Assembly (NCBI GenBank): GCA_002753395.1
Contig: PEAB01000006.1
Span: forward strand, 1-64,000
From: Nitrospirae bacterium MYbinv3
GTDB lineage: Bacteria > Nitrospirota > Thermodesulfovibrionia > Thermodesulfovibrionales > Magnetobacteriaceae
DNA length: 64,000 nt
Direction of reading: 5' to 3'
In this document: positions 25,087-41,816 of the stretch, in pieces
How the letters are laid out: every line of letters begins with the position of its first letter
How positions within the stretch are numbered: position 1 is the stretch's first letter
Notes under the pieces: generated by a model
What the model saw: only the letters and a program-made list of their open reading frames with translations
What the model was told of the DNA's origin: nothing
Databases searched by the model: none
Translations under genes and position numbers: made by a program

Positions 25087-25208
25087 TAATGCTGTTGACT
25101 TAAATGAATAAGGAGGGCTTTGCCCTCCCTAGACCCTCACACAAGGGGACCTGACCCCTTGACCCCATTAAAATATATCTTTGTTCCCATTAATAATATT
25201 ATGCACCC
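25087..25208. repeat. Chimeric repeat: family B left end, family A right end
   Basis: The left end is the family B terminus (TAATGCTGTTGACTTAA). The interior is the shared core (GGAGGGCTTTGCCCTCC, ACAAGGGGACCTGACCCCTTGACCCC). The right end is the family A terminus (...TTATGCACCC), which abuts the stop codon of the next gene. No flanking duplication is visible. This indicates recombination between family A and B copies through their shared core. Confidence 0.7.
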
Positions 25209-27585: not shown

Positions 27586-30138
27586 TTACTCGCCGGTTGA
27601 GCCGGCGCTTACTGTATGGCTCTTTGTCCCTTCTGATTCAATCTGGTCTAATGGCCTATTTGGCAGTGAATTTAGATGCTTATTAACTATATAAAGCGTC
27701 TCCTGATCTGGTACATTAAACTCGAGTTTCTGGATATGCTGTTTGATCTCTGCCTCTCTCTCATCCAATATCTCCATAAGATCCTTATATGTTTGTTTGT
27801 CAATTTCTTTATTCTTAAGTTGAGAATACAGAGTATCTCTTTCTTTAAAGATATTCTCCAAATTTTTTTGGCTATTTTCCAGATAAGTTTGGATGAACTT
27901 AACGGAGTGGTCATATAGTATTTCATCACGAGCCTTGAGTTGTTTTATTTGCCGTTGACGGCTTTCCACAGCAAAGGTTATCTCGTCCTCATTAGCTCGT
28001 TTTCGAGCTTTTCCTTCTACTATTTCGTCATGTCTCTTGACATGGATCGATACCTCACTTAACTCAATACCTACGTCTTTTTTCTTCTCAATGTATTTTT
28101 TTGCAATTTCCATACATTCACTATCAATAGATTCAGTACTGGCTGAGGATGTCCTTTCCATGTATCTTTTTATCCCCTCTATTACGTTGTCTTTTAATAG
28201 TTTTTCTTCCTGTTCAACGTTGACTGACTTAGGAGATTTAACAACAACCTTTATGTTTCCCCATAAACCATACGTTTCTCTATTAGCCGAAAAGATATCA
28301 ATTGGTTTATCATCAGTGGCTAACTCTATAGTTAAGGACTCTTTAGCTTCTATAATGCTTATAAAGCGATGGAGGAGTCTAGCAGAATACGTTTCAAAGA
28401 CAGGAGACTGATCAATCCATTCTATAAAGGTGCTGAATGGTAAGTTCTCGAAATTCTCCGAGGTTCTTGCCTTCATCGACAGATAAGCATAAAGGTCTGT
28501 TATAAAATCATTTTCATTGAATGGCTTTTCGTTGAGAGCCTCTATTACGACCTGCCCCCTTATCTCATAATCCGCTGCAACTGGCAAAGTGACAATGACT
28601 TCTATAGGGATCGTAAGCTCCCTGACATAGTCCTCTATAGCTGGCAGTTCAACTGTGAATATGGTAGCATCAAGGTCTCCAATATTTCCCACTTTTAGTA
28701 TGATATCTTGAACCTTGACAGGGGTTATGCTACCTTCAACTTCTTGTACAGTTTTATATAGCTCGGATTCTATACGGGCGCGAATCTGTTGTAAAGTAGG
28801 CTCATCGTCTCTGCTGCCTCTACAATGCACAGTTGCCTGCTTAAGAACATAAGTATGACCTGTCTTGGTCTTTAAGGGAGAGATACCTTCTCTTGCGATA
28901 TTTATAGTGATATATCGAGTGACGTCTTTAACCTCAACGTATGCCTTATCAACAATAATCCCAAAGAGAACACCCTTACCTGCCCTTTCTATGATCTTCT
29001 CACAAGAATCCTGCTGCGGGTAAACCGTGAGATTGCGAAACTCTTTTCTTAACTCGTCGGTGAGGTGGGATTTAAGCTGTTCCTCGACATAAGGTATATC
29101 CTTAATCACACGACAGTTAACCTTAGCTCGCAGCTCATAGACAAATCCTTCCTTATTACGTGTTGTAGTTTGAAAAGTAATCTCTTTGTCCCTATATATT
29201 ATCTTAGGGCTTACGGGGACTTGAACTGAGTCGATTAAAGCCTGACAGTCTATAAGATTTGGGGTTTGTAATACAACATCTCTTATCTGTTCTACTTGAA
29301 TGAGGACATCATGCCTTTTTGCAGAGAACCTCAGATGTTCAATTATAAGTTGACGCAGTCTCTTAATGTTATCATCAAGAGCGTTTCCACTTCTGCCTCT
29401 TACCTCTACGATGACCCTATACCTCTCATCTCTCGATGTGTCAAGTTCAATCCCTTGTATATCCAGAGAGTCTTGGCCCATTTGTTGTTTTTGAACGGAG
29501 TCTTTAATAATCCTAATACTATCGTAGTTTGATTGCTCTGGCGTCGACACATCTGAGTGTTTAATGTCTCTTAAGGCCCTGGTAGCGTTACCGTTTTTCA
29601 CGATTAGTGTATTTACTGGTTTTAGTTTTATCTCATCACTGTGGAGCCAGAATATAAATTGGGTTGACTCGTCAGTGATATCCAAGTCAATGACCTCTGT
29701 GACTCTTATTGGTATTCTGCCCTGAGTATCTGACATAAGCATTTGTACACAGCGCTGTGGAACTATATCTGATAAGGCTTGGAAATCCGGTATGAAATCG
29801 GACTTTTTTCTCTCTATGAAGGCTCGAAGCGGGTCTTCTCCAAGGTGTATCCGTTTAGCAAGATCAGCCGTGTCTCTACAATGACAAGCTAATTTAAACC
29901 TAACATGGTACGTCAAGCCAACTTTATCTTTGGTCTTTATCTCAAATGGTATGATGACAGGCTTTTTAGTAACACTATAACCGGGATTTCTCTTAAAGAG
30001 AGGTAAACTGTCTCCTTCTGTGAATACTCTAGCGGAAAGTGCATGAGATGGTCCACTTACCTCTACGATGTCAAGATCCGGATATTGTTTCCAATCTGTA
30101 TCGAAGATCATACGCATATGTCTTGTAAGATTTTCCAT
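27586..30138 (-). CDS. SPFH-like multi-repeat protein of the TIR locus
   Basis: An 850-residue protein not recognised as a named family. It contains at least three alpha/beta units with the rhythm of SPFH/band-7 domains: a strand pair 'TKD-x-YxV', a strand ending in C(R)-x-D, a long amphipathic helix, then a strand 'GI-V-V-EV-D'. Unit 1 is about 60-170 (TKDKVGLTYHVRFKLACHCRD), unit 2 about 315-425 (VYELRAKVNCRVIKD ... LFGIIVDKAYVEVKDVTRY), and unit 3 about 425-520 (TKTGHTYVLKQATVHCRGS). The C-terminal 180 residues are coiled coil (RQRQIKQLKARDEILYDHS) ending in QETLYIVNKHL. No membrane helix or signal is seen. It is the last gene of the four-gene TIR locus. The SPFH resemblance is by eye and needs a profile search. 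Confidence 0.7.
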   Translation of the reverse strand: MENLTRHMRMIFDTDWKQYPDLDIVEVSGPSHALSARVFTEGDSLPLFKRNPGYSVTKKPVIIPFEIKTKDKVGLTYHVRFKLACHCRDTADLAKRIHLGEDPLRAFIERKKSDFIPDFQALSDIVPQRCVQMLMSDTQGRIPIRVTEVIDLDITDESTQFIFWLHSDEIKLKPVNTLIVKNGNATRALRDIKHSDVSTPEQSNYDSIRIIKDSVQKQQMGQDSLDIQGIELDTSRDERYRVIVEVRGRSGNALDDNIKRLRQLIIEHLRFSAKRHDVLIQVEQIRDVVLQTPNLIDCQALIDSVQVPVSPKIIYRDKEITFQTTTRNKEGFVYELRAKVNCRVIKDIPYVEEQLKSHLTDELRKEFRNLTVYPQQDSCEKIIERAGKGVLFGIIVDKAYVEVKDVTRYITINIAREGISPLKTKTGHTYVLKQATVHCRGSRDDEPTLQQIRARIESELYKTVQEVEGSITPVKVQDIILKVGNIGDLDATIFTVELPAIEDYVRELTIPIEVIVTLPVAADYEIRGQVVIEALNEKPFNENDFITDLYAYLSMKARTSENFENLPFSTFIEWIDQSPVFETYSARLLHRFISIIEAKESLTIELATDDKPIDIFSANRETYGLWGNIKVVVKSPKSVNVEQEEKLLKDNVIEGIKRYMERTSSASTESIDSECMEIAKKYIEKKKDVGIELSEVSIHVKRHDEIVEGKARKRANEDEITFAVESRQRQIKQLKARDEILYDHSVKFIQTYLENSQKNLENIFKERDTLYSQLKNKEIDKQTYKDLMEILDEREAEIKQHIQKLEFNVPDQETLYIVNKHLNSLPNRPLDQIESEGTKSHTVSAGSTGE

Positions 30139-30170
30139 AATGAATCCTCCTGTATATTAATGTTTATGTT

Positions 30171-30337
30171 GTATCCTCTTTATAATTCATGGTAATTATG
30201 CTTTTAAGCTTTTTGGATTCCTGCTTACGCAGGAATGACGTATTTGGAAAACACCTATTACTGTCATTCCCACAGAAGTGGGAATCCGTGTTCTGAAAGC
30301 ATAAGAATACATTTACCATGTTTTTTTAAGATGATAC
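30171..30337 (-). mobile_element. Family C MITE-like element, complete, with perfect 8-bp duplication
   Basis: The element is 167 bp and runs from GTATCCTCTTTATAATTCATGG to CCATGTTTTTTTAAGATGATAC. It is flanked by TTTATGTT on both sides (30163-30170 and 30338-30345). Inside are two REP-like hairpins, ATTCCTGCTTACGCAGGAAT and ATTCCCACAGAAGTGGGAAT. It lies between two genes of the TIR locus; without it and one duplication copy the genes would be 38 bp apart. Confidence 0.85.
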
Positions 30338-30351
30338 TTTATGTTCTTGTT

Positions 30352-32292
30352 TTATAAACGCAGGCGACAACTCTTAGCTGACGTACCTCCTGCCTTTATC
30401 CTCTTCTCTACTACATTAAAGACCTCTTTTCTAACGTCTGCAATAGGTGCCTGCTTCCACGGTTCTATCAATGCCCAGAAGAGTTGTTGAAAGTCAGACG
30501 TCTTTGCTGCTTGACCGGTTTGGATTGTTGAAACCCTTATTCTCCTTGTTTGTATCTTCTCAGCGGCTTGTTTATCCTTGCTGCAGGCGCTAAGTTCCTC
30601 GTAAACCGATATCAGCAGATCCTCCACTATAATACGCACCATTGGCTCATAAGTCTTCTTATCGTCTTTCCTTAAAAAGGCGTCAAGCCAGGCGCCTAGT
30701 AACTCTACGTTAGCATGACTAATGAGTATGTCAACTATATCAGAAGGAGAACGAATGATAGTGACAAGAACAACGATGATTGCCATCTTTACATCCTCCT
30801 GAAGACTTTGGGTGAAATTCATCCAAAGCGCCTCTAAACTCTTACTCTCAAAGTTCTTCTCTTTACCTATCTCAAGTTTTCCGTATTTAGATAGCTCTGT
30901 TATAACACGAGAGATAAGTACATCAAGTGTTTTAATAAACAGCGTTATCTGTACCTTTCTCAATTCCGGGTCTTCTTCCTCCTTAATCCACTGACTGAGC
31001 GCCATTAACACGTTACGGTAAAAGCCGTCTAGACCAAGAGCAACGAGTGAATAGACAACGGCATCTAAAACGAACCCTACATCGTTTTGCTTGTTTTCAC
31101 TCACTTTTCTTTTGAGGGTATGTCTTATTACATCCAAGGCAAGTTCTATCTTCACGCTGCCAATCTCCTTACACACAGAGGCCGCTGCCCACTGAAAGTT
31201 TGAGTTATTGCTGTCAATCAATCCTTTTAGAAAATTAGAAACGTTATCAGGAGAAAGGCCTGTCTCCAAGGCTCTGCTCAACAAATAGCCAATTGTAGCC
31301 CTAATATGCGGAAAATCGCTATTTGCCCAATATTGCTTTATATAATCGTAGATCTTTGATGTGCCAAGCTGTATAAATCCCCCTATTGCATAACCAATCT
31401 GTTGACGTTCATACAACCTCAGACTTGTCCTGCCAGCAACAAGCTCAAACAACGCTTTAATCACCTGCAACAGTATTATATCCCTATATTGTCGTCTAAT
31501 GAAGCCCTCCATGTCTGGCATGTTATTAAACCGAATAACTTCCACATGCTCTCCAGCCACTTCTACAGAAGAATAATGGGCATCTAATCTTTCAAGTATC
31601 CCACCAAGCCTTTCGTCAAATATAGACTGTCGCGGCAGGACCTCAGATTTAACAGAGTCTCTGTTAGCCTCGGTGTTCTTAACAGAGTTACGCTCTGCTT
31701 TTTGTTGTGCCACGGTAGGAACGTTGCCTATCCTTTCTACAACCTCGTTAAATATCTCCTCAAGCCTTGACCATTCCATCTGAGGAAACATAACTACGAG
31801 GATAGCAAAAATCTTGTCTCTATCGAATGCCTCCCTCATACGGTTACTAATACCAGTAGTATCCCTTGATTCAGAGGTGTTTTTTGTTTTTAACTCTGCT
31901 TCTTCCTCCAGATTTCTTATCTTGGCATCAAGTTCATTGAGTTCTTTAGTGTAAAGGTCTATATTCAATTTGCATCGCTCAAAATCCTCAAGATTTCTAG
32001 CTATATCAGTAGCTTTATATACATTCATCCAGTGTTTTATTCGATCTTCTATCAATGCCCTCATCCTCTTGTGTTCCCCTACTCCTGCATTGGGCGAGCT
32101 AAATATACGTCTTCCAATGTCCTGGCGTTCCTCATGTTGCGGTTTGCTGCTGTCAAAGGGTTTTGGTTTCTGAGCATCTTCAGCCCCCTCAGGGGGTTGA
32201 GATACCTGTGGCTGATCGTTGACAGTGGTGTCTTGAGGGCTGTGATTAATCTCGTTTTGTCCTTGAGGGATGTTGTCTTGTTCTGTTGACAT
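30352..32292 (-). CDS. Helical-repeat protein with a segment shared with the TIR protein
   Basis: A 646-residue protein of unknown family. The first 65 residues are low-complexity (P, Q, E rich). Residues about 73-130 form a helical/coiled segment that aligns without gaps with the C-terminus of the neighbouring TIR protein (shared pattern RI-x-H-x3-V ... KL-x-I-x2-Y-x-KEL-x2-L). Residues about 260-600 are a chain of helices of HEAT/ARM type (LLQVIKALFELVAGRTSLRLYERQ, DFPHIRATIGYLLSRALETG, NSNFQWAAASVCKEIGSV, DVGFVLDAVVYSLVALGLDG), consistent with a scaffold. No catalytic motif or membrane helix is visible. It starts 9 bp after the TIR gene. Confidence 0.72.
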   Translation of the reverse strand: MSTEQDNIPQGQNEINHSPQDTTVNDQPQVSQPPEGAEDAQKPKPFDSSKPQHEERQDIGRRIFSSPNAGVGEHKRMRALIEDRIKHWMNVYKATDIARNLEDFERCKLNIDLYTKELNELDAKIRNLEEEAELKTKNTSESRDTTGISNRMREAFDRDKIFAILVVMFPQMEWSRLEEIFNEVVERIGNVPTVAQQKAERNSVKNTEANRDSVKSEVLPRQSIFDERLGGILERLDAHYSSVEVAGEHVEVIRFNNMPDMEGFIRRQYRDIILLQVIKALFELVAGRTSLRLYERQQIGYAIGGFIQLGTSKIYDYIKQYWANSDFPHIRATIGYLLSRALETGLSPDNVSNFLKGLIDSNNSNFQWAAASVCKEIGSVKIELALDVIRHTLKRKVSENKQNDVGFVLDAVVYSLVALGLDGFYRNVLMALSQWIKEEEDPELRKVQITLFIKTLDVLISRVITELSKYGKLEIGKEKNFESKSLEALWMNFTQSLQEDVKMAIIVVLVTIIRSPSDIVDILISHANVELLGAWLDAFLRKDDKKTYEPMVRIIVEDLLISVYEELSACSKDKQAAEKIQTRRIRVSTIQTGQAAKTSDFQQLFWALIEPWKQAPIADVRKEVFNVVEKRIKAGGTSAKSCRLRL

Positions 32293-32301
32293 AACGCCTC
32301 C

Positions 32302-33063
32302 TTAGATTAATCTTTGTTCTAATTGTTCAAGTTCTTTTAAATAAATCTCAATCCTTAGCTTTATCTCTTCATATCTATCAGGAGCAAACAAGGGATCTAC
32401 AGTATTGATGACCTTAGTAAAGTGTTCGATTCGACCTGATATGTGTTGAATCTGCATTGAGGTAATGTTACGTCTGAGGGCAGTAGACGGGTGTTTTTCT
32501 ATATCATGCAATTTCTCAACGAGACGCTCCCTGCTTTCCACAGCGCTGATTTTTTTAGGCAATCCCTTGATCGCATTCCTTATCCCTCTGGCGACATCGC
32601 TCAGAGCCTCGTCTATGTTGGACCAGCTTTTAACAGCTCTACTATTTGAGGGCAGAGATTGAAGTTTACCAAATGGAGCGCTATGCCAGTCTGTATCACA
32701 TATGATAATTGGAATTACAAAACACTCGTTGAGATCATAACGCCTCATTGCTCGTTTCATCTCTATATCATAACAGTAGTCGGATGCTATAAAGTCAGGA
32801 GTAACAAGCAGTAAAACGATACTGGCAGTCTCTAAATGGGAGTCTATAACTTTTTCCCACTCTTGCCCAGGTAGTATCTTTCTACCGTGCCAGATCCTTA
32901 CGATACCCTCTCGCTGCATGAACATCAGGTGTTGTTCAAGTTTTACTCTAACTTCCTCATCATTGAAAGAGTAGGATATAAATACTTCAACGGGCCAATC
33001 ATGCTTTAGGTTGTGCCCCTTGTTGCCATTTTCCTGGTCGTTATATGACATACACACCTCCAT
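32302..33063 (-). CDS. TIR domain protein with C-terminal adaptor helix
   Basis: A 253-residue protein. The TIR domain spans about 22-165: strand A VEVFISYSFNDEEVR, the BB-loop region IVRIWHGRKILPGQEWEKVID, ASIVLLLVTPDFIASDYCYDIEMKRAM with the glutamate at the position of the TIR NADase catalytic residue, and FVIPIIICDTDWHSAPF. Residues about 205-253 form a helical segment (RIEHFTKVINTV ... EEIKLRIEIYLKELEQLEQRL) that matches the N-terminal region of the helical-repeat protein encoded next. Bacterial TIR domains either degrade NAD or make cyclic ADP-ribose signals in defence, or act as interaction modules; which applies here is open. It lies 14 bp after the zinc-ribbon membrane protein gene. 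Confidence 0.88.
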   Translation of the reverse strand: MEVCMSYNDQENGNKGHNLKHDWPVEVFISYSFNDEEVRVKLEQHLMFMQREGIVRIWHGRKILPGQEWEKVIDSHLETASIVLLLVTPDFIASDYCYDIEMKRAMRRYDLNECFVIPIIICDTDWHSAPFGKLQSLPSNSRAVKSWSNIDEALSDVARGIRNAIKGLPKKISAVESRERLVEKLHDIEKHPSTALRRNITSMQIQHISGRIEHFTKVINTVDPLFAPDRYEEIKLRIEIYLKELEQLEQRLI

Positions 33064-33077
33064 GAGTTAATATTGAG

Positions 33078-33959
33078 TTATCTATCGTTAATAGGATAGA
33101 CACTGGCAATCCTCCAGTCACCTTCCTCCTTCTCTAATTTAAAACAAACTGTTAAGGACTCCGTAACATCATGATTTCTATAGATATTGTGTTCAATAAA
33201 AAACAACGCTGTTCCGTCAGATAATTTGAACAAACCGATTGCATTTATAGAATAGTCTGAGATCTCGCCTGCTATTTCTGAAAGAGAATTAGATAAATGT
33301 TTCGTTCTATCTCTGCGTACGTGAGTGTTTATAGCCATACGCACATTTTTACTCTTTAAGGCGTTAAAATAACTTGTTATCACTGATGTGATGTTTTCTT
33401 TTTCTTTTTTTGAATTTTCTTCTGCTTCTTGTATCTTCTGTAACTCACCTTTTAGTAATTCATTTTCATCAGTAAGTCTTATGTTATATTGTACTTTGTC
33501 ATCAAGCTGTCTTAGTATATCAGCATATTGAGGCTCCTTCTGCTCTTTTTCCTTTCTTAGACTGATAAGCTCTATGGCTTGTCTTTCTATAAACTCGTTT
33601 GCAATCTTAAGTTCTTCCTTCTTCTTTAAATTAAGTCTAATTGTTGTAAACAGCACAATTAATAAGATAACAATCAAAGCTATACGTTCAGTATTTAAAA
33701 ATAACCTTATAGATTTTTTGGGTTTTTTCACGTCTCCATAGACAGGTACATAATCTAAAGTCTCTGATTGACCGCAATGACGCTGCCCTATAGTCACCCA
33801 ACTATCATATATAAATCCTAACTCACATACTGCGCAAAATACGACCTTATCACCTGGTTCTAAAGGCTCATGTGTAACAGGATCCAAATATCCTTTCTGT
33901 AAATAACTTCTATGTGCTTTCTTATCCAGTGTATGTATGTTCACCTTAATATCTGCCAT
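33078..33959 (-). CDS. Zinc-ribbon / membrane helix / coiled-coil / NTF2-like protein
   Basis: A 293-residue protein, first gene of the TIR locus, with AAGGAGA upstream of its ATG. Residues about 25-70 form a probable metal-binding knuckle (DPVTHEPLEPGDKVVFCAVC, then DSWVTIGQRHCGQSETL), similar in spirit to the RING/zinc-ribbon modules found in bacterial signalling and conflict proteins. A single membrane helix follows (about 92-110, ALIVILLIVLFTTIRL), then a long coiled coil (about 112-190). The C-terminal 100 residues resemble an NTF2/SnoaL-like fold (ITSVITSYFNALKSKNVRMAINTHV ... CFKLEKEEGDWRIASVYPI). It probably anchors the complex at the inner membrane. No family name can be given. Confidence 0.72.
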   Translation of the reverse strand: MADIKVNIHTLDKKAHRSYLQKGYLDPVTHEPLEPGDKVVFCAVCELGFIYDSWVTIGQRHCGQSETLDYVPVYGDVKKPKKSIRLFLNTERIALIVILLIVLFTTIRLNLKKKEELKIANEFIERQAIELISLRKEKEQKEPQYADILRQLDDKVQYNIRLTDENELLKGELQKIQEAEENSKKEKENITSVITSYFNALKSKNVRMAINTHVRRDRTKHLSNSLSEIAGEISDYSINAIGLFKLSDGTALFFIEHNIYRNHDVTESLTVCFKLEKEEGDWRIASVYPINDR

Positions 33960-34312
33960 AAAAAGTTTATCTCCTTAAAACAAAAATCGATTATTCTTCG
34001 AACAGAGATACGGTGTGATACCCAAACCGAGGTAAAATGCTGGATTAAATACGTTAAAAACCCTTAATATTATTAGATTTTGATTGTAACACAAAAGGCA
34101 AAACATTTCAAGAAAAATCGAGGGCGCATAAGAAATTTATGGGAACAAAAACATATTTTAACGGGGTCAAGGGGACTGGTCCCCTTGCGGAGGGGTCTGA
34201 GGGGAGGCAGAGCCTCCCCTTCTTTGACAAAGCGCCCAGCAGAAATAATGAGTTGCAAATTGATCGCAAATGTTATATGATATACCTAAATTTTAGAAAT
34301 ATAGGAGTGTAA
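33960..34312. repeat. Divergent intergenic region with a one-ended family A copy
   Basis: The gap separates the divergent TIR locus and lysA and must hold both promoters; none is obvious. At 34121-34225 is a family A copy with a left end GGGCGCATAAGAA and the palindrome AAGGGGACTGGTCCCCTT, but no right end. The lysA ribosome binding site (TAGGAG) lies near 34300. Confidence 0.65.
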
Positions 34313-39404: not shown

Positions 39405-41636
39405 ATGGAAAAAGTAGTTTTACTTGATAATATAATCAACTCTTCTATAGACATTGCAATCGCTGCCACCGATTTGCAGTTTGTTATTATCTACTGTAAT
39501 AAAGTAGGCAAGGAGCTCTTTGGGTATGGGGCAGACGAGATTGTTGGTAAAACAGTTATGGATATACATGCTAGCAGAGAGGTTGACCAGACATGGTTTG
39601 AAGCCGGGATAAAGGCTGTCAAGGCAGCTGGGTCTTTCACGTATGCCTATAAACAGGTACGAGGTAAGAAGATAAAGTATATAGAGTCTAAGATATCGGG
39701 CATATTGAACAATAACAATGAACTGATGGGTTATGTCATGGCATCTAAGGACGTAACCGAGGGCAGGATGGTAGAGCTGGCCTTACGTCGTCACGTAGAG
39801 ATAGACAGGCTCAAGGCCGAGATTTCGACTAAGTTCATAAGGGTAACAGCAAGTGAACTCTTTAACGAAATTGACATGACTATAGAACGGATGGGGAGAT
39901 TCCTTTCAGTTGATAGGAGCTGCGTGTTTATAAATGAAAATAAGAGTGGCGGAATATCATATATATACGAATGGTGTGCGCATGGTGTTAAACCCGGCCT
40001 TGAGTTTGTAAAAAAGATGACTCGCAAAAGATTTCCTTGGTTCATGGGGATGCTCAAAAAAGGTGAGTTGTTTTCGTTTAGCTCTATAAACCAGGTGTCT
40101 TCTGAGACGGAGAGGGCTGAACTAATGCTAATGAACGTTAAGTCGATGATAGTCATTCCGATGGTTTATGACCACGAGACTGCTGGTTTTTTGTGGTTTG
40201 TTACAACAAATGAAGAGCGTGCGTGGAGTGAAGAGGACATCATGCTTGTAAAAATGGCTGGAGACATTTTTGTCAACGCCCTTGTGAGAAACGAGACACA
40301 ACAACGCCTTGAACAGTTGGCACACTTTGACCCGCTGACTAATATCCCTAACCGCATGTTGTTTAACGACCGCCTGACTCAGGCCATGGAACAATCGCTA
40401 CGCAGCAATAGGAAACTAGCCCTATTGTTTCTTGACCTTGACAGGTTTAAGATGATAAACGACACATTAGGGCATGACGTTGGCGACCTGCTGCTTAAGG
40501 AGACGGCAGCGCGTCTTAACACATGCGTACGCAAGTCTGATACCGTTGCCCGCATGGGTGGGGATGAGTTTGCTGTTATAATTACAAATGTCGCTAGCAA
40601 CGTCTCGGTGGCCAACGTGGCAAAAAAGATAATTAATTCACTGTCCAGCCCGTTTTATCTGCATGGACACGAGTGTTCAATCGGTGTCAGCATTGGGATC
40701 AGCATGTTTCCATCAGACTCAAACGATACTGTAACGCTGCTTAAGTACGCTGACATAGCAATGTATCAGGTCAAATCACAGGGTAGAAACAGTTACCGGT
40801 TCTACTCCCCAAGTATGAACGAAAAGGCATTAAGACGGCTTAAGATAGAGACCCTTATGCGTAAGACCATTGACAGGAGCGGTTTTCAAGTGCTGTATCA
40901 ACCTCAGGTTGACATATACACGGGACAATTGAAGGGCATGGAAGGGATCTTAAGATGGCACACGTATGAGATGGGCGACATATCCCCCTCGGAGTTTATC
41001 CCCGTGGCCGAGGAGGCCGGTCTTATTATCCCTATCGGAGCCTGGATGCTCAAAGAGATCTGCCGGCAGAGTATGATATGGGTAGATGAGGGCTTTAACC
41101 ACCTGAACATGGCCGTAAAGATCCTGAGCAGCCAGTTTAAACACAAACAGTTGCAGGATATAATCAATACGATTATAAAAGAAACCGCCTTTAATCCTAT
41201 ATATCTAGAGCTCGAACTAACTGAAAGCACGTTGATGCAAGACATTGATGAGGCCGTTAAGGTGCTTTGGAATCTTAAGAGTGAGGGGTTTCATATAACC
41301 GTTGACAACTTCGGCACTGGACACTCTTGCCTGAGCTACATCAAGCTCTTTCCAATAGATACACTAAAAATAGACAAGGTGCTGATACACAGGATAGCCA
41401 CTGACGCAGATTACTCAGCAGTAGCACGGGCTATTATAGCCTTTGCCCACACCCTTGGTCTAAAGGTTATCGCTGACGGGGTAGAGACCTTGGACCAGCT
41501 CGAATTCCTCCGCTCTGTCAGCTGTAACGAGGTACAGGGGCCGCTGTTTAGCCCCCCAATGCCTGCTGAAGCCATAACTCAAATACTCATGGAGGAAAAG
41601 CACTTCAGCGTTTATAATAGAAAGGTATCATCTTAA
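39405..41636 (+). CDS. PAS-GAF-GGDEF protein with degenerate EAL domain
   Basis: Starting at MEKVVLLDNI gives 743 residues. Order: PAS about 5-115, GAF-like about 150-300, GGDEF about 305-475 and EAL about 480-735. The GGDEF site is intact (MGGDEFAV), so synthesis of cyclic di-GMP is expected. The EAL domain departs from active enzymes: EGI instead of EAL, AVKILSSQF where AVNLSxxQF carries a metal-binding asparagine, and VDNFGTG where DDFGTG carries the second aspartate. ELTES, KID and ADGVET are kept or near. It is more likely a cyclic di-GMP binding or regulatory domain than a phosphodiesterase. The last codons (VSS, stop) lie in a family C element end. Confidence 0.88.
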   Translation: MEKVVLLDNIINSSIDIAIAATDLQFVIIYCNKVGKELFGYGADEIVGKTVMDIHASREVDQTWFEAGIKAVKAAGSFTYAYKQVRGKKIKYIESKISGILNNNNELMGYVMASKDVTEGRMVELALRRHVEIDRLKAEISTKFIRVTASELFNEIDMTIERMGRFLSVDRSCVFINENKSGGISYIYEWCAHGVKPGLEFVKKMTRKRFPWFMGMLKKGELFSFSSINQVSSETERAELMLMNVKSMIVIPMVYDHETAGFLWFVTTNEERAWSEEDIMLVKMAGDIFVNALVRNETQQRLEQLAHFDPLTNIPNRMLFNDRLTQAMEQSLRSNRKLALLFLDLDRFKMINDTLGHDVGDLLLKETAARLNTCVRKSDTVARMGGDEFAVIITNVASNVSVANVAKKIINSLSSPFYLHGHECSIGVSIGISMFPSDSNDTVTLLKYADIAMYQVKSQGRNSYRFYSPSMNEKALRRLKIETLMRKTIDRSGFQVLYQPQVDIYTGQLKGMEGILRWHTYEMGDISPSEFIPVAEEAGLIIPIGAWMLKEICRQSMIWVDEGFNHLNMAVKILSSQFKHKQLQDIINTIIKETAFNPIYLELELTESTLMQDIDEAVKVLWNLKSEGFHITVDNFGTGHSCLSYIKLFPIDTLKIDKVLIHRIATDADYSAVARAIIAFAHTLGLKVIADGVETLDQLEFLRSVSCNEVQGPLFSPPMPAEAITQILMEEKHFSVYNRKVSS

Positions 41637-41791
41637 GAAAGCATGGTAAGTTTATTTTTATGGTTTCAAAACATGGATTCCCACTTTCGTGGGAATGAGT
41701 GTAATAGGTGTTTTCCAAGCATGTCATTCCTGTGTAAGTAGGAATACAGAAAGCTTAAAAGCATAATTACCATGAAATATAAAGAAGATAC
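41625..41791 (+). mobile_element. Family C MITE-like element overlapping a gene's stop codon
   Basis: The element is 167 bp, from GTATCATCTTAAG to ATATAAAGAAGATAC, in the opposite orientation to the copy at 30171. Internal hairpins are ATTCCCACTTTCGTGGGAAT and a decayed ATTCCTGTGTAAGTAGGAAT. Flanks ATAGAAAG and ATAAAAAG match at 7 of 8. Its first bases provide the final codons and stop of the GGDEF-EAL gene. Confidence 0.8.
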
Positions 41792-41816
41792 ATAAAAAGG
41801 TCATACAGTAAAACAA

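What the first reader, a model, noticed from the sequence alone, without database searches (positions are those of the whole stretch)
27586..33959. Four-gene TIR locus of unknown function
Seen: four minus-strand genes, spaced 14 bp, 9 bp and (without an inserted MITE) 38 bp, encode a zinc-ribbon/membrane/coiled-coil/NTF2-like protein, a TIR protein, a helical-repeat scaffold and an SPFH-like repeat protein. Known: bacterial TIR domains serve in antiphage and conflict systems, often as NADases or signal makers, and zinc-ribbon membrane anchors and helical scaffolds are frequent partners. Inference: the four form one membrane-attached signalling or defence complex. I do not recognise this combination as a named system.
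Basis: partly seen in the sequence, partly recalled or inferred. Interest (0 to 1): 0.82.

Follow-up and report, generated by a model that had tools for sequence, protein, structure and literature searches.

The report
TIR effector module tied to bacterial ubiquitin-like system
Four neighbouring bacterial genes look like an immune-type signalling complex: a TIR enzyme clipped to a helical scaffold by a shared small adaptor, with a membrane protein whose close relatives sit in bacterial ubiquitin-like tagging operons; bacteria may thus couple protein tagging to TIR signalling, though nothing has been tested in the laboratory.

Summary
The four genes are real, with the stated order and spacing. 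The 213-bp gap before the last gene holds a repeat element with at least 40 copies in this genome. (1) The TIR protein's C-terminal ~55 residues and the scaffold's N-terminal ~60 residues are the same small helical domain, in both genomes where they occur. This is the 'effector-associated domain' (EAD) logic, with an adaptor in no Pfam EAD family. (2) The 'zinc ribbon' is a one-zinc, RING/U-box-like domain ahead of a TM segment. Its closest relatives are membrane proteins inside E1-Ubl-E2-JAB operons in several phyla and in this same genome, where the Ubl ends in an exposed Gly. One Kordia relative is fused to a TIR. (3) The only other TIR-scaffold-repeat trio found (one of 396 same-phylum genomes) lies inside an E1/E2/RING/JAB cluster. 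The 850-aa protein's repeat unit is modelled with an SPFH-like fold (TM about 0.5 to stomatin). Best reading: a laterally acquired, membrane-anchored, EAD-type TIR effector complex that works with a ubiquitin-like conjugation system, probably in conflict or defence. NADase activity and defence are untested. New variant of a known kind.

The parts
33078..33959 (-). Gene 1 (293 aa): RING-like domain, TM, coiled coil, NTF2-like membrane protein
   Evidence: ORF; AlphaFold and Foldseek; relatives in E1/Ubl/E2/JAB loci
33750..33959 (-). RING/U-box-like one-zinc domain, residues 1-70 (CAVC and HC retained)
   Evidence: pLDDT about 90 over residues 10-70; iterated profile reaches Prok-RING fingers; Pfam Prok-RING_1 below cut-off on two relatives
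33627..33683 (-). Transmembrane segment, residues 93-111
   Evidence: hydropathy 2.57; net charge +5 before and +1 after
33078..33392 (-). NTF2-like C-terminal domain, residues about 190-293, probably extracytoplasmic
   Evidence: Foldseek: NTF2 probability about 0.99 but E 0.03-0.05, low-confidence model region
32302..33063 (-). Gene 2 (253 aa): TIR effector; E101 (codon 32761-32763) at the catalytic-Glu position by inspection
   Evidence: PF13676 E 4.2e-13; G009 relative 44% identical
32305..32481 (-). Adaptor domain, copy on the TIR C-terminus (residues 195-253)
30352..32292 (-). Gene 3 (646 aa): helical scaffold or core protein
   Evidence: ORF; G009 relative 38% identical; only weak HEAT hit
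31897..32079 (-). Adaptor domain, copy on the scaffold N-terminus (residues 72-132)
30171..30337 (.). Inserted MITE-like repeat element between genes 3 and 4
   Evidence: at least 40 copies in the genome at 80-89% identity
27586..30138 (-). Gene 4 (850 aa): SPFH-like repeat protein with C-terminal coiled coil
   Evidence: ORF; internal repeats; G009 relative 33% identical
28033..29970 (-). About six SPFH-like repeat units, residues 57-702
   Evidence: internal similarity
28879..29226 (-). SPFH-like repeat unit 3 (residues 305-420), the unit that was modelled
   Evidence: pLDDT 72.7, pTM 0.60; stomatin SPFH TM 0.51-0.55 at Foldseek ranks 45 and 50

Best explanation
The locus encodes an effector-associated-domain (EAD) type TIR signalling complex that belongs with a bacterial ubiquitin-like (Ubl) conjugation system. 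Shown by sequence: the TIR carries a C-terminal copy, and the helical scaffold an N-terminal copy, of one small adaptor domain; the membrane protein has a RING-like N-terminal domain of a family otherwise found in E1-Ubl-E2-JAB operons. Inferred: the adaptors pair homotypically and hold the TIR on the scaffold; the SPFH-repeat protein assembles at the membrane as a platform; the membrane protein places its variable outer domain (NTF2-like here; transglycosylase, SH3 or PPC in relatives) outside and its RING-like domain inside, so envelope stress or phage attack is relayed inward, with Ubl-E2 and/or the TIR complex recruited. Clustered TIR domains then cleave NAD+ or make an ADP-ribose signal, stopping growth or killing the infected cell.
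For: Shared adaptor: cross-hits in both genomes, alignment A9, no other convincing copies in 19 family genomes, shuffle test. Trio order and strand conserved in G009, flanked by E1, RING, E2 and JAB genes on one side and AAA+phosphoesterase, VWA, JAB, E2 and E1 genes on the other. Own genome C91: E1, YukD-like Ubl ending ...TDAG, E2, E2-JAB and a RING-like-TM-transglycosylase protein. RING-like domain found in E1 loci of Thiomargarita, a cyanobacterium, Kordia, another Bacteroidetes and Saprospiraceae. Kordia L030: TIR fused to the RING-like domain; separate order TIR, helical core, repeat protein, with TIR and core sharing a 43-aa segment (E 4e-10). EAD11 on the L032 core protein, just below the Pfam cut-off. 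EAD principle and Ubl-EAD1 systems: Kaur et al. 2020, PMC7159879. Bacterial RINGs that keep only the central-hairpin and C-terminal Zn pairs: PMC11354881.
Against: Only two genomes hold the trio, so the neighbourhood evidence is n=2. No E1, E2, Ubl or JAB gene lies in the window locus itself; the link there is in trans plus one homologous domain. P850 and the repeat proteins of L028/L030 are not detectably homologous, nor are the scaffold and their core proteins. The RING-like assignment rests on iterated profiles in a small set and on Pfam hits below cut-off. No ATPase was found in the scaffold, whereas most published EAD cores are NTP-dependent. TIR activity is inferred from a conserved Glu only. 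No phage or defence-island context was seen.
Confidence: 0.5

Rival explanations
1. A free-standing TIR conflict complex (EAD type) with no functional tie to ubiquitin-like conjugation. The RING-like domain in gene 1 would be only a protein-interaction or membrane-anchor module, and the E1/E2 genes beside the G009 copy would be neighbours in a shared island.
For: No Ubl enzymes in the window locus. TIR, scaffold and P850 contain no Ubl-pathway domain. Gene 1's RING-like domain has lost half of its zinc ligands. Unrelated conflict genes often cluster (established knowledge).
Against: Apart from the window locus, the RING-like family was found only in E1/Ubl/E2/JAB loci, though most loci searched were picked by their E1. 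Kordia fuses it to a TIR inside such a locus. The own genome carries both. G009 carries E1/E2/JAB genes on both sides of the trio.
Confidence: 0.3
2. A Thoeris-like system: the TIR makes a cyclic ADP-ribose signal for a separate effector, and the other three genes are sensors or regulators.
For: PADLOC ThsB model matches the TIR domain (1.5e-52 over residues 26-172).
Against: No ThsA-like gene beside the locus or in the G009 neighbourhood. The ThsB match covers only the common TIR domain. The C-terminus is an adaptor shared with the scaffold.
Confidence: 0.08
3. A non-defence envelope or cell-biology complex: the SPFH-like platform and wall-sensing membrane protein organise membrane domains, with the TIR as a scaffold or NAD-linked signal in stress or development.
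For: SPFH proteins organise membranes and regulate proteases (established knowledge). Outer domains of the RING-like relatives include SLT_2, SH3 and PPC. No phage genes nearby (one search gives ORFs only; neighbours read by eye).
Against: Patchy distribution (2 of 396 genomes) and a different neighbourhood in congeners suggest a laterally acquired accessory. TIR, caspase and EAD partners in related loci are typical of conflict systems.
Confidence: 0.12

Closest known systems
EAD-coupled NTP-dependent conflict systems (Kaur et al. 2020, PMC7159879), especially FtsH-ternary systems with Ubl ligases
   Same: Identical small adaptor on the effector and on an adjacent core protein; effector types such as TIR and caspase; accompanying helical proteins; Ubl conjugation enzymes nearby in G009
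   Different: Adaptor not in any Pfam EAD family; no MoxR/vWA/STAND/GTPase core found in the window locus; SPFH-like repeat protein and RING-like-TM-NTF2 protein found in no family searched here; EAD1 not seen
Bacterial E1-E2-Ubl-JAB operons (Iyer et al. 2006 class 6, PMC1779556; Bil systems)
   Same: The RING-like-TM protein family sits in such operons, including one on contig C91 of this genome; G009 carries the TIR trio beside E1/E2/RING/JAB genes
   Different: The window locus has none of the conjugation enzymes; adds TIR, scaffold and SPFH-like repeats; the C91 Ubl is a single YukD-like domain, not the double-domain BilA
Thoeris (ThsB TIR)
   Same: TIR domain matches the PADLOC ThsB model
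   Different: No ThsA found beside it; different partners; TIR carries an adaptor
SPFH (stomatin, HflK/C) proteins
   Same: Modelled repeat unit has similar topology and TM about 0.5 to stomatin SPFH
   Different: About six tandem units; no Pfam match; no TM segment; eS1 ribosomal proteins match equally well or better
RING/U-box E3 domains, Prok-RING_1
   Same: Central CxxC hairpin, W after the helix start, distal HC; profile bridge to Prok-RING fingers of E1 loci
   Different: Only one of two zinc sites kept; Pfam hits on relatives below cut-off, none on the window protein; E2 binding unknown

Membership tests
EAD-type conflict system | Same small non-enzymatic domain on effector and on adjacent core protein | tested here: met
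EAD-type conflict system | Adaptor belongs to a described EAD family (Pfam) | tested here: not met
   no Pfam family at E up to 10 except an unrelated 0.16 match on one member
EAD-type conflict system | NTPase-containing core | tested here: inconclusive
   no NTPase domain in the window scaffold; G009 neighbour has an AAA match just below cut-off
EAD-type conflict system | Homotypic adaptor binding | not testable with these tools
   needs binding assay
Bacterial Ubl conjugation operon | E1, E2, Ubl and JAB genes in the locus | tested here: not met
   absent from the window locus; present elsewhere in the same genome on C91 and beside the G009 copy
Thoeris | ThsB-like TIR protein | tested here: inconclusive
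   PADLOC ThsB 1.5e-52, TIR part of the model only
Thoeris | ThsA partner gene | tested here: not met
   not among the neighbours in the window or G009; rest of genome not searched
TIR NADase | Catalytic Glu conserved | tested here: inconclusive
   E101 invariant in both copies and placed at the catalytic position from my knowledge of TIR NADases; no NADase structure was aligned (one search returns only Toll-like receptors)
TIR NADase | NAD+ cleavage | not testable with these tools
   needs enzyme assay
RING E3 domain | Two zinc sites (eight ligands) | tested here: not met
   one site kept (CAVC, HC), the other replaced by DPVT and IYDSW
RING E3 domain | Homology to prokaryotic RING fingers | tested here: inconclusive
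   iterated profile 1.5e-10 to L065; Pfam Prok-RING_1 0.0023 and 0.045 on relatives, below cut-off
SPFH family | SPFH fold | tested here: inconclusive
   modelled unit TM 0.51-0.55 to stomatin, but eS1 ranks first
SPFH family | Sequence match to an SPFH/Band 7 profile | tested here: not met
   no Pfam family

The most novel reading that the evidence does not exclude
Bacteria possess a ubiquitin-to-TIR immune axis: a membrane RING-like receptor and a Ubl conjugation system recruit a TIR-EAD/scaffold/SPFH-repeat assembly that clusters TIR domains and triggers NAD+-based signalling or cell death.
Probability: 0.3. Interest if true: 0.85.

Novelty: new variant of a known kind. Interest (0 to 1): 0.64.

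Why it matters
TIR signalling and ubiquitin tagging are tightly coupled in animal innate immunity. In bacteria both are known in phage defence; in the papers read here I found no description of them joined through one RING-like membrane protein and an adaptor-coupled TIR complex. If true, it gives a compact testable case of Ubl-controlled TIR signalling, a new adaptor family, a tandem SPFH-like scaffold, and a family of envelope receptors with a constant RING-like inner domain and swappable outer domains.

Tried and rejected
Single-protein genome scan with the scaffold found nothing; viral scans with A2 and A1 found nothing; plasmid tblastn of the scaffold and of the G009 P850 found nothing. 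Scaffold profile in 398 genomes of the Thiomargarita phylum and P850 profile in 50 E1-bearing genomes: none. Weak scaffold hits in G038, G065 and G103: the G103 one falls in a DnaA-like gene, so all were rejected as chance. hhalign of P850 to the L028/L030 repeat proteins and of the scaffold to their core proteins was not significant (the first attempt, used a wrong global option and is void). PDB sequence searches with A1, A2 and A11: no match. PHROGs: none. Thoeris rejected for lack of ThsA beside the locus. UQ_con search of the own genome was empty with no positive control, although C91 carries E2-like proteins recognisable by eye (no Pfam match). A tandem-unit alignment for folding failed because overlaps aligned to themselves.

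Full report
Observation. Searches confirm four co-directional minus-strand genes with gaps of 14, 9 and 213 bp. The 213-bp gap carries a ~167-bp element found at least 40 times in the genome at 80-89% identity. In two congeners lysA is flanked by different DNA on this side, and the locus is GC-poor (0.395 against 0.44-0.45), so it probably arrived by lateral transfer. The own genome has two other TIR genes.

The TIR-scaffold link. A profile built only from the scaffold (A2) also hits the C-terminus of the TIR protein in both genomes (E 1.6e-4 and 5.4e-5), and the TIR profile hits the scaffold N-terminus (1.6e-6). The four segments align over ~60 residues with a common core close to 'RIxHFxKVxNATDPxFNPERYEEIKLxIExYTKEL'. 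A search of the 19 family genomes with this domain finds these four copies at 8e-28 or better (they built the profile) and otherwise only matches near E 0.02-0.04. Against shuffled scaffolds the TIR segment scores 15.6 bits for the real scaffold versus 9.2 for the best shuffle. No Pfam EAD matches it. Kaur et al. (PMC7159879) describe effector-associated domains by this pattern and propose homotypic bridging; that step is inferred here.

The second locus. Among 149 relatives and 396 same-phylum genomes, only G009 has the scaffold at a credible score, and only G009 of the 149 relatives has P850. It encodes TIR, scaffold and P850 in the same order (44, 38 and 33% identity). Downstream lie E1 (ThiF), Prok-RING (just below cut-off), E2 and JAB; upstream lie a calcineurin phosphoesterase with an AAA match just below cut-off, VWA, JAB, E2 and E1 (the upstream E1 is assigned from its alignment).

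The membrane protein. Its N-terminal ~62 residues match a paralog in the same genome on contig C91, inside a locus with E1, YukD-like Ubl (ending ...TDAG), E2-like protein, E2-JAB fusion and a RING-like-TM-transglycosylase protein. A genome-collection scan with E1 gave 80 loci; the best five (51-65% identical E1, in Thiomargarita, a cyanobacterium and three Bacteroidota) all carry this domain. Iterating the profile reaches the Prok-RING fingers of Chloroflexi, Planctomycetes and other E1 loci, and two members match Prok-RING_1 below cut-off. The window copy keeps the central CxxC and a distal HC but has lost the first CxxC (DPVT) and the HxxC (IYDSW); bacterial RINGs with just these two retained pairs are described (PMC11354881). 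After the TM the domain varies: SLT_2 and PEGA, SH3_3, PPC (weak), or NTF2-like. Charge distribution favours the RING-like end inside. In Kordia (L030) a TIR is fused to this domain, and a separate TIR, helical core and repeat protein follow one another; TIR and core share a segment (E 4e-10) unrelated to the window adaptor. The same logic is therefore seen with different parts.

P850. Repeats of about 95 residues are detectable within the protein; six units can be laid out by eye and aligned. Unit 3 modelled with the other repeats as alignment gives a beta-beta-alpha-alpha-beta topology (pLDDT 72.7). Foldseek matches eS1 ribosomal proteins first, and stomatin SPFH and HflK/C at TM about 0.5. 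SPFH-like is therefore a fair label at fold level but not a proven membership.

Mechanism (inferred). Envelope or infection signal, then outer domain of gene 1, then RING-like inner face with Ubl-E2 and/or TIR complex, then adaptor-held TIR domains clustered on the scaffold and SPFH platform, then NAD+ cleavage or signal. Shown: domain anatomy, shared adaptor, genomic links. Not shown: catalysis, binding, conjugation, defence.

Limits.

Noticed in passing
L023 (own genome contig C91) 6277-13118: E1 / YukD-like Ubl / E2-like / E2-JAB fusion / RING-like-TM-transglycosylase locus in the same genome; the Ubl ends in an exposed ...TDAG, and close E1 relatives (up to 65% identity) lie in Thiomargarita and a cyanobacterium, which suggests lateral transfer.
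   Followed up: partly
L030 264-15094 (Kordia periserrulae): Caspase, TIR, helical core, repeat protein, DUF4407, TIR fused to the RING-like domain, then E1-Ubl-E2-JAB; TIR and core share a 43-aa segment, a different adaptor from that of the window.
   Followed up: partly
L028-L032 and L023: Family of membrane proteins with a constant RING-like inner domain and swappable outer domains (SLT_2, PEGA, SH3_3, PPC, NTF2-like).
   Followed up: partly
L028-L032 and L023, many proteins: Short K-(K/R)-F-x-(I/V) motifs recur at the ends of many proteins of these Ubl loci, as if a common docking peptide (seen by eye).
   Followed up: no
window 30171-30337: MITE-like repeat with at least 40 copies in the genome at 80-89% identity, inserted between genes 3 and 4; a further copy at window 41622-41792.
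   Followed up: yes
window 34160-34225 and 25116-25168: Short GC-rich repeat that also occurs in a congener (L124 6317-6383 and 7488-7545).
   Followed up: no
L025 and L013 (G009 contig C64): Large Ubl cluster with two E1, at least three JAB and two E2 genes, RING, VWA and FHA-like proteins, and a vWA protein ending in a RING-like finger.
   Followed up: partly
L014 3540-4436 (own genome contig C10): Another TIR protein, apparently fused to a DUF1566/Lcl-like domain (read by eye), beside a transposase-like nuclease gene.
   Followed up: no
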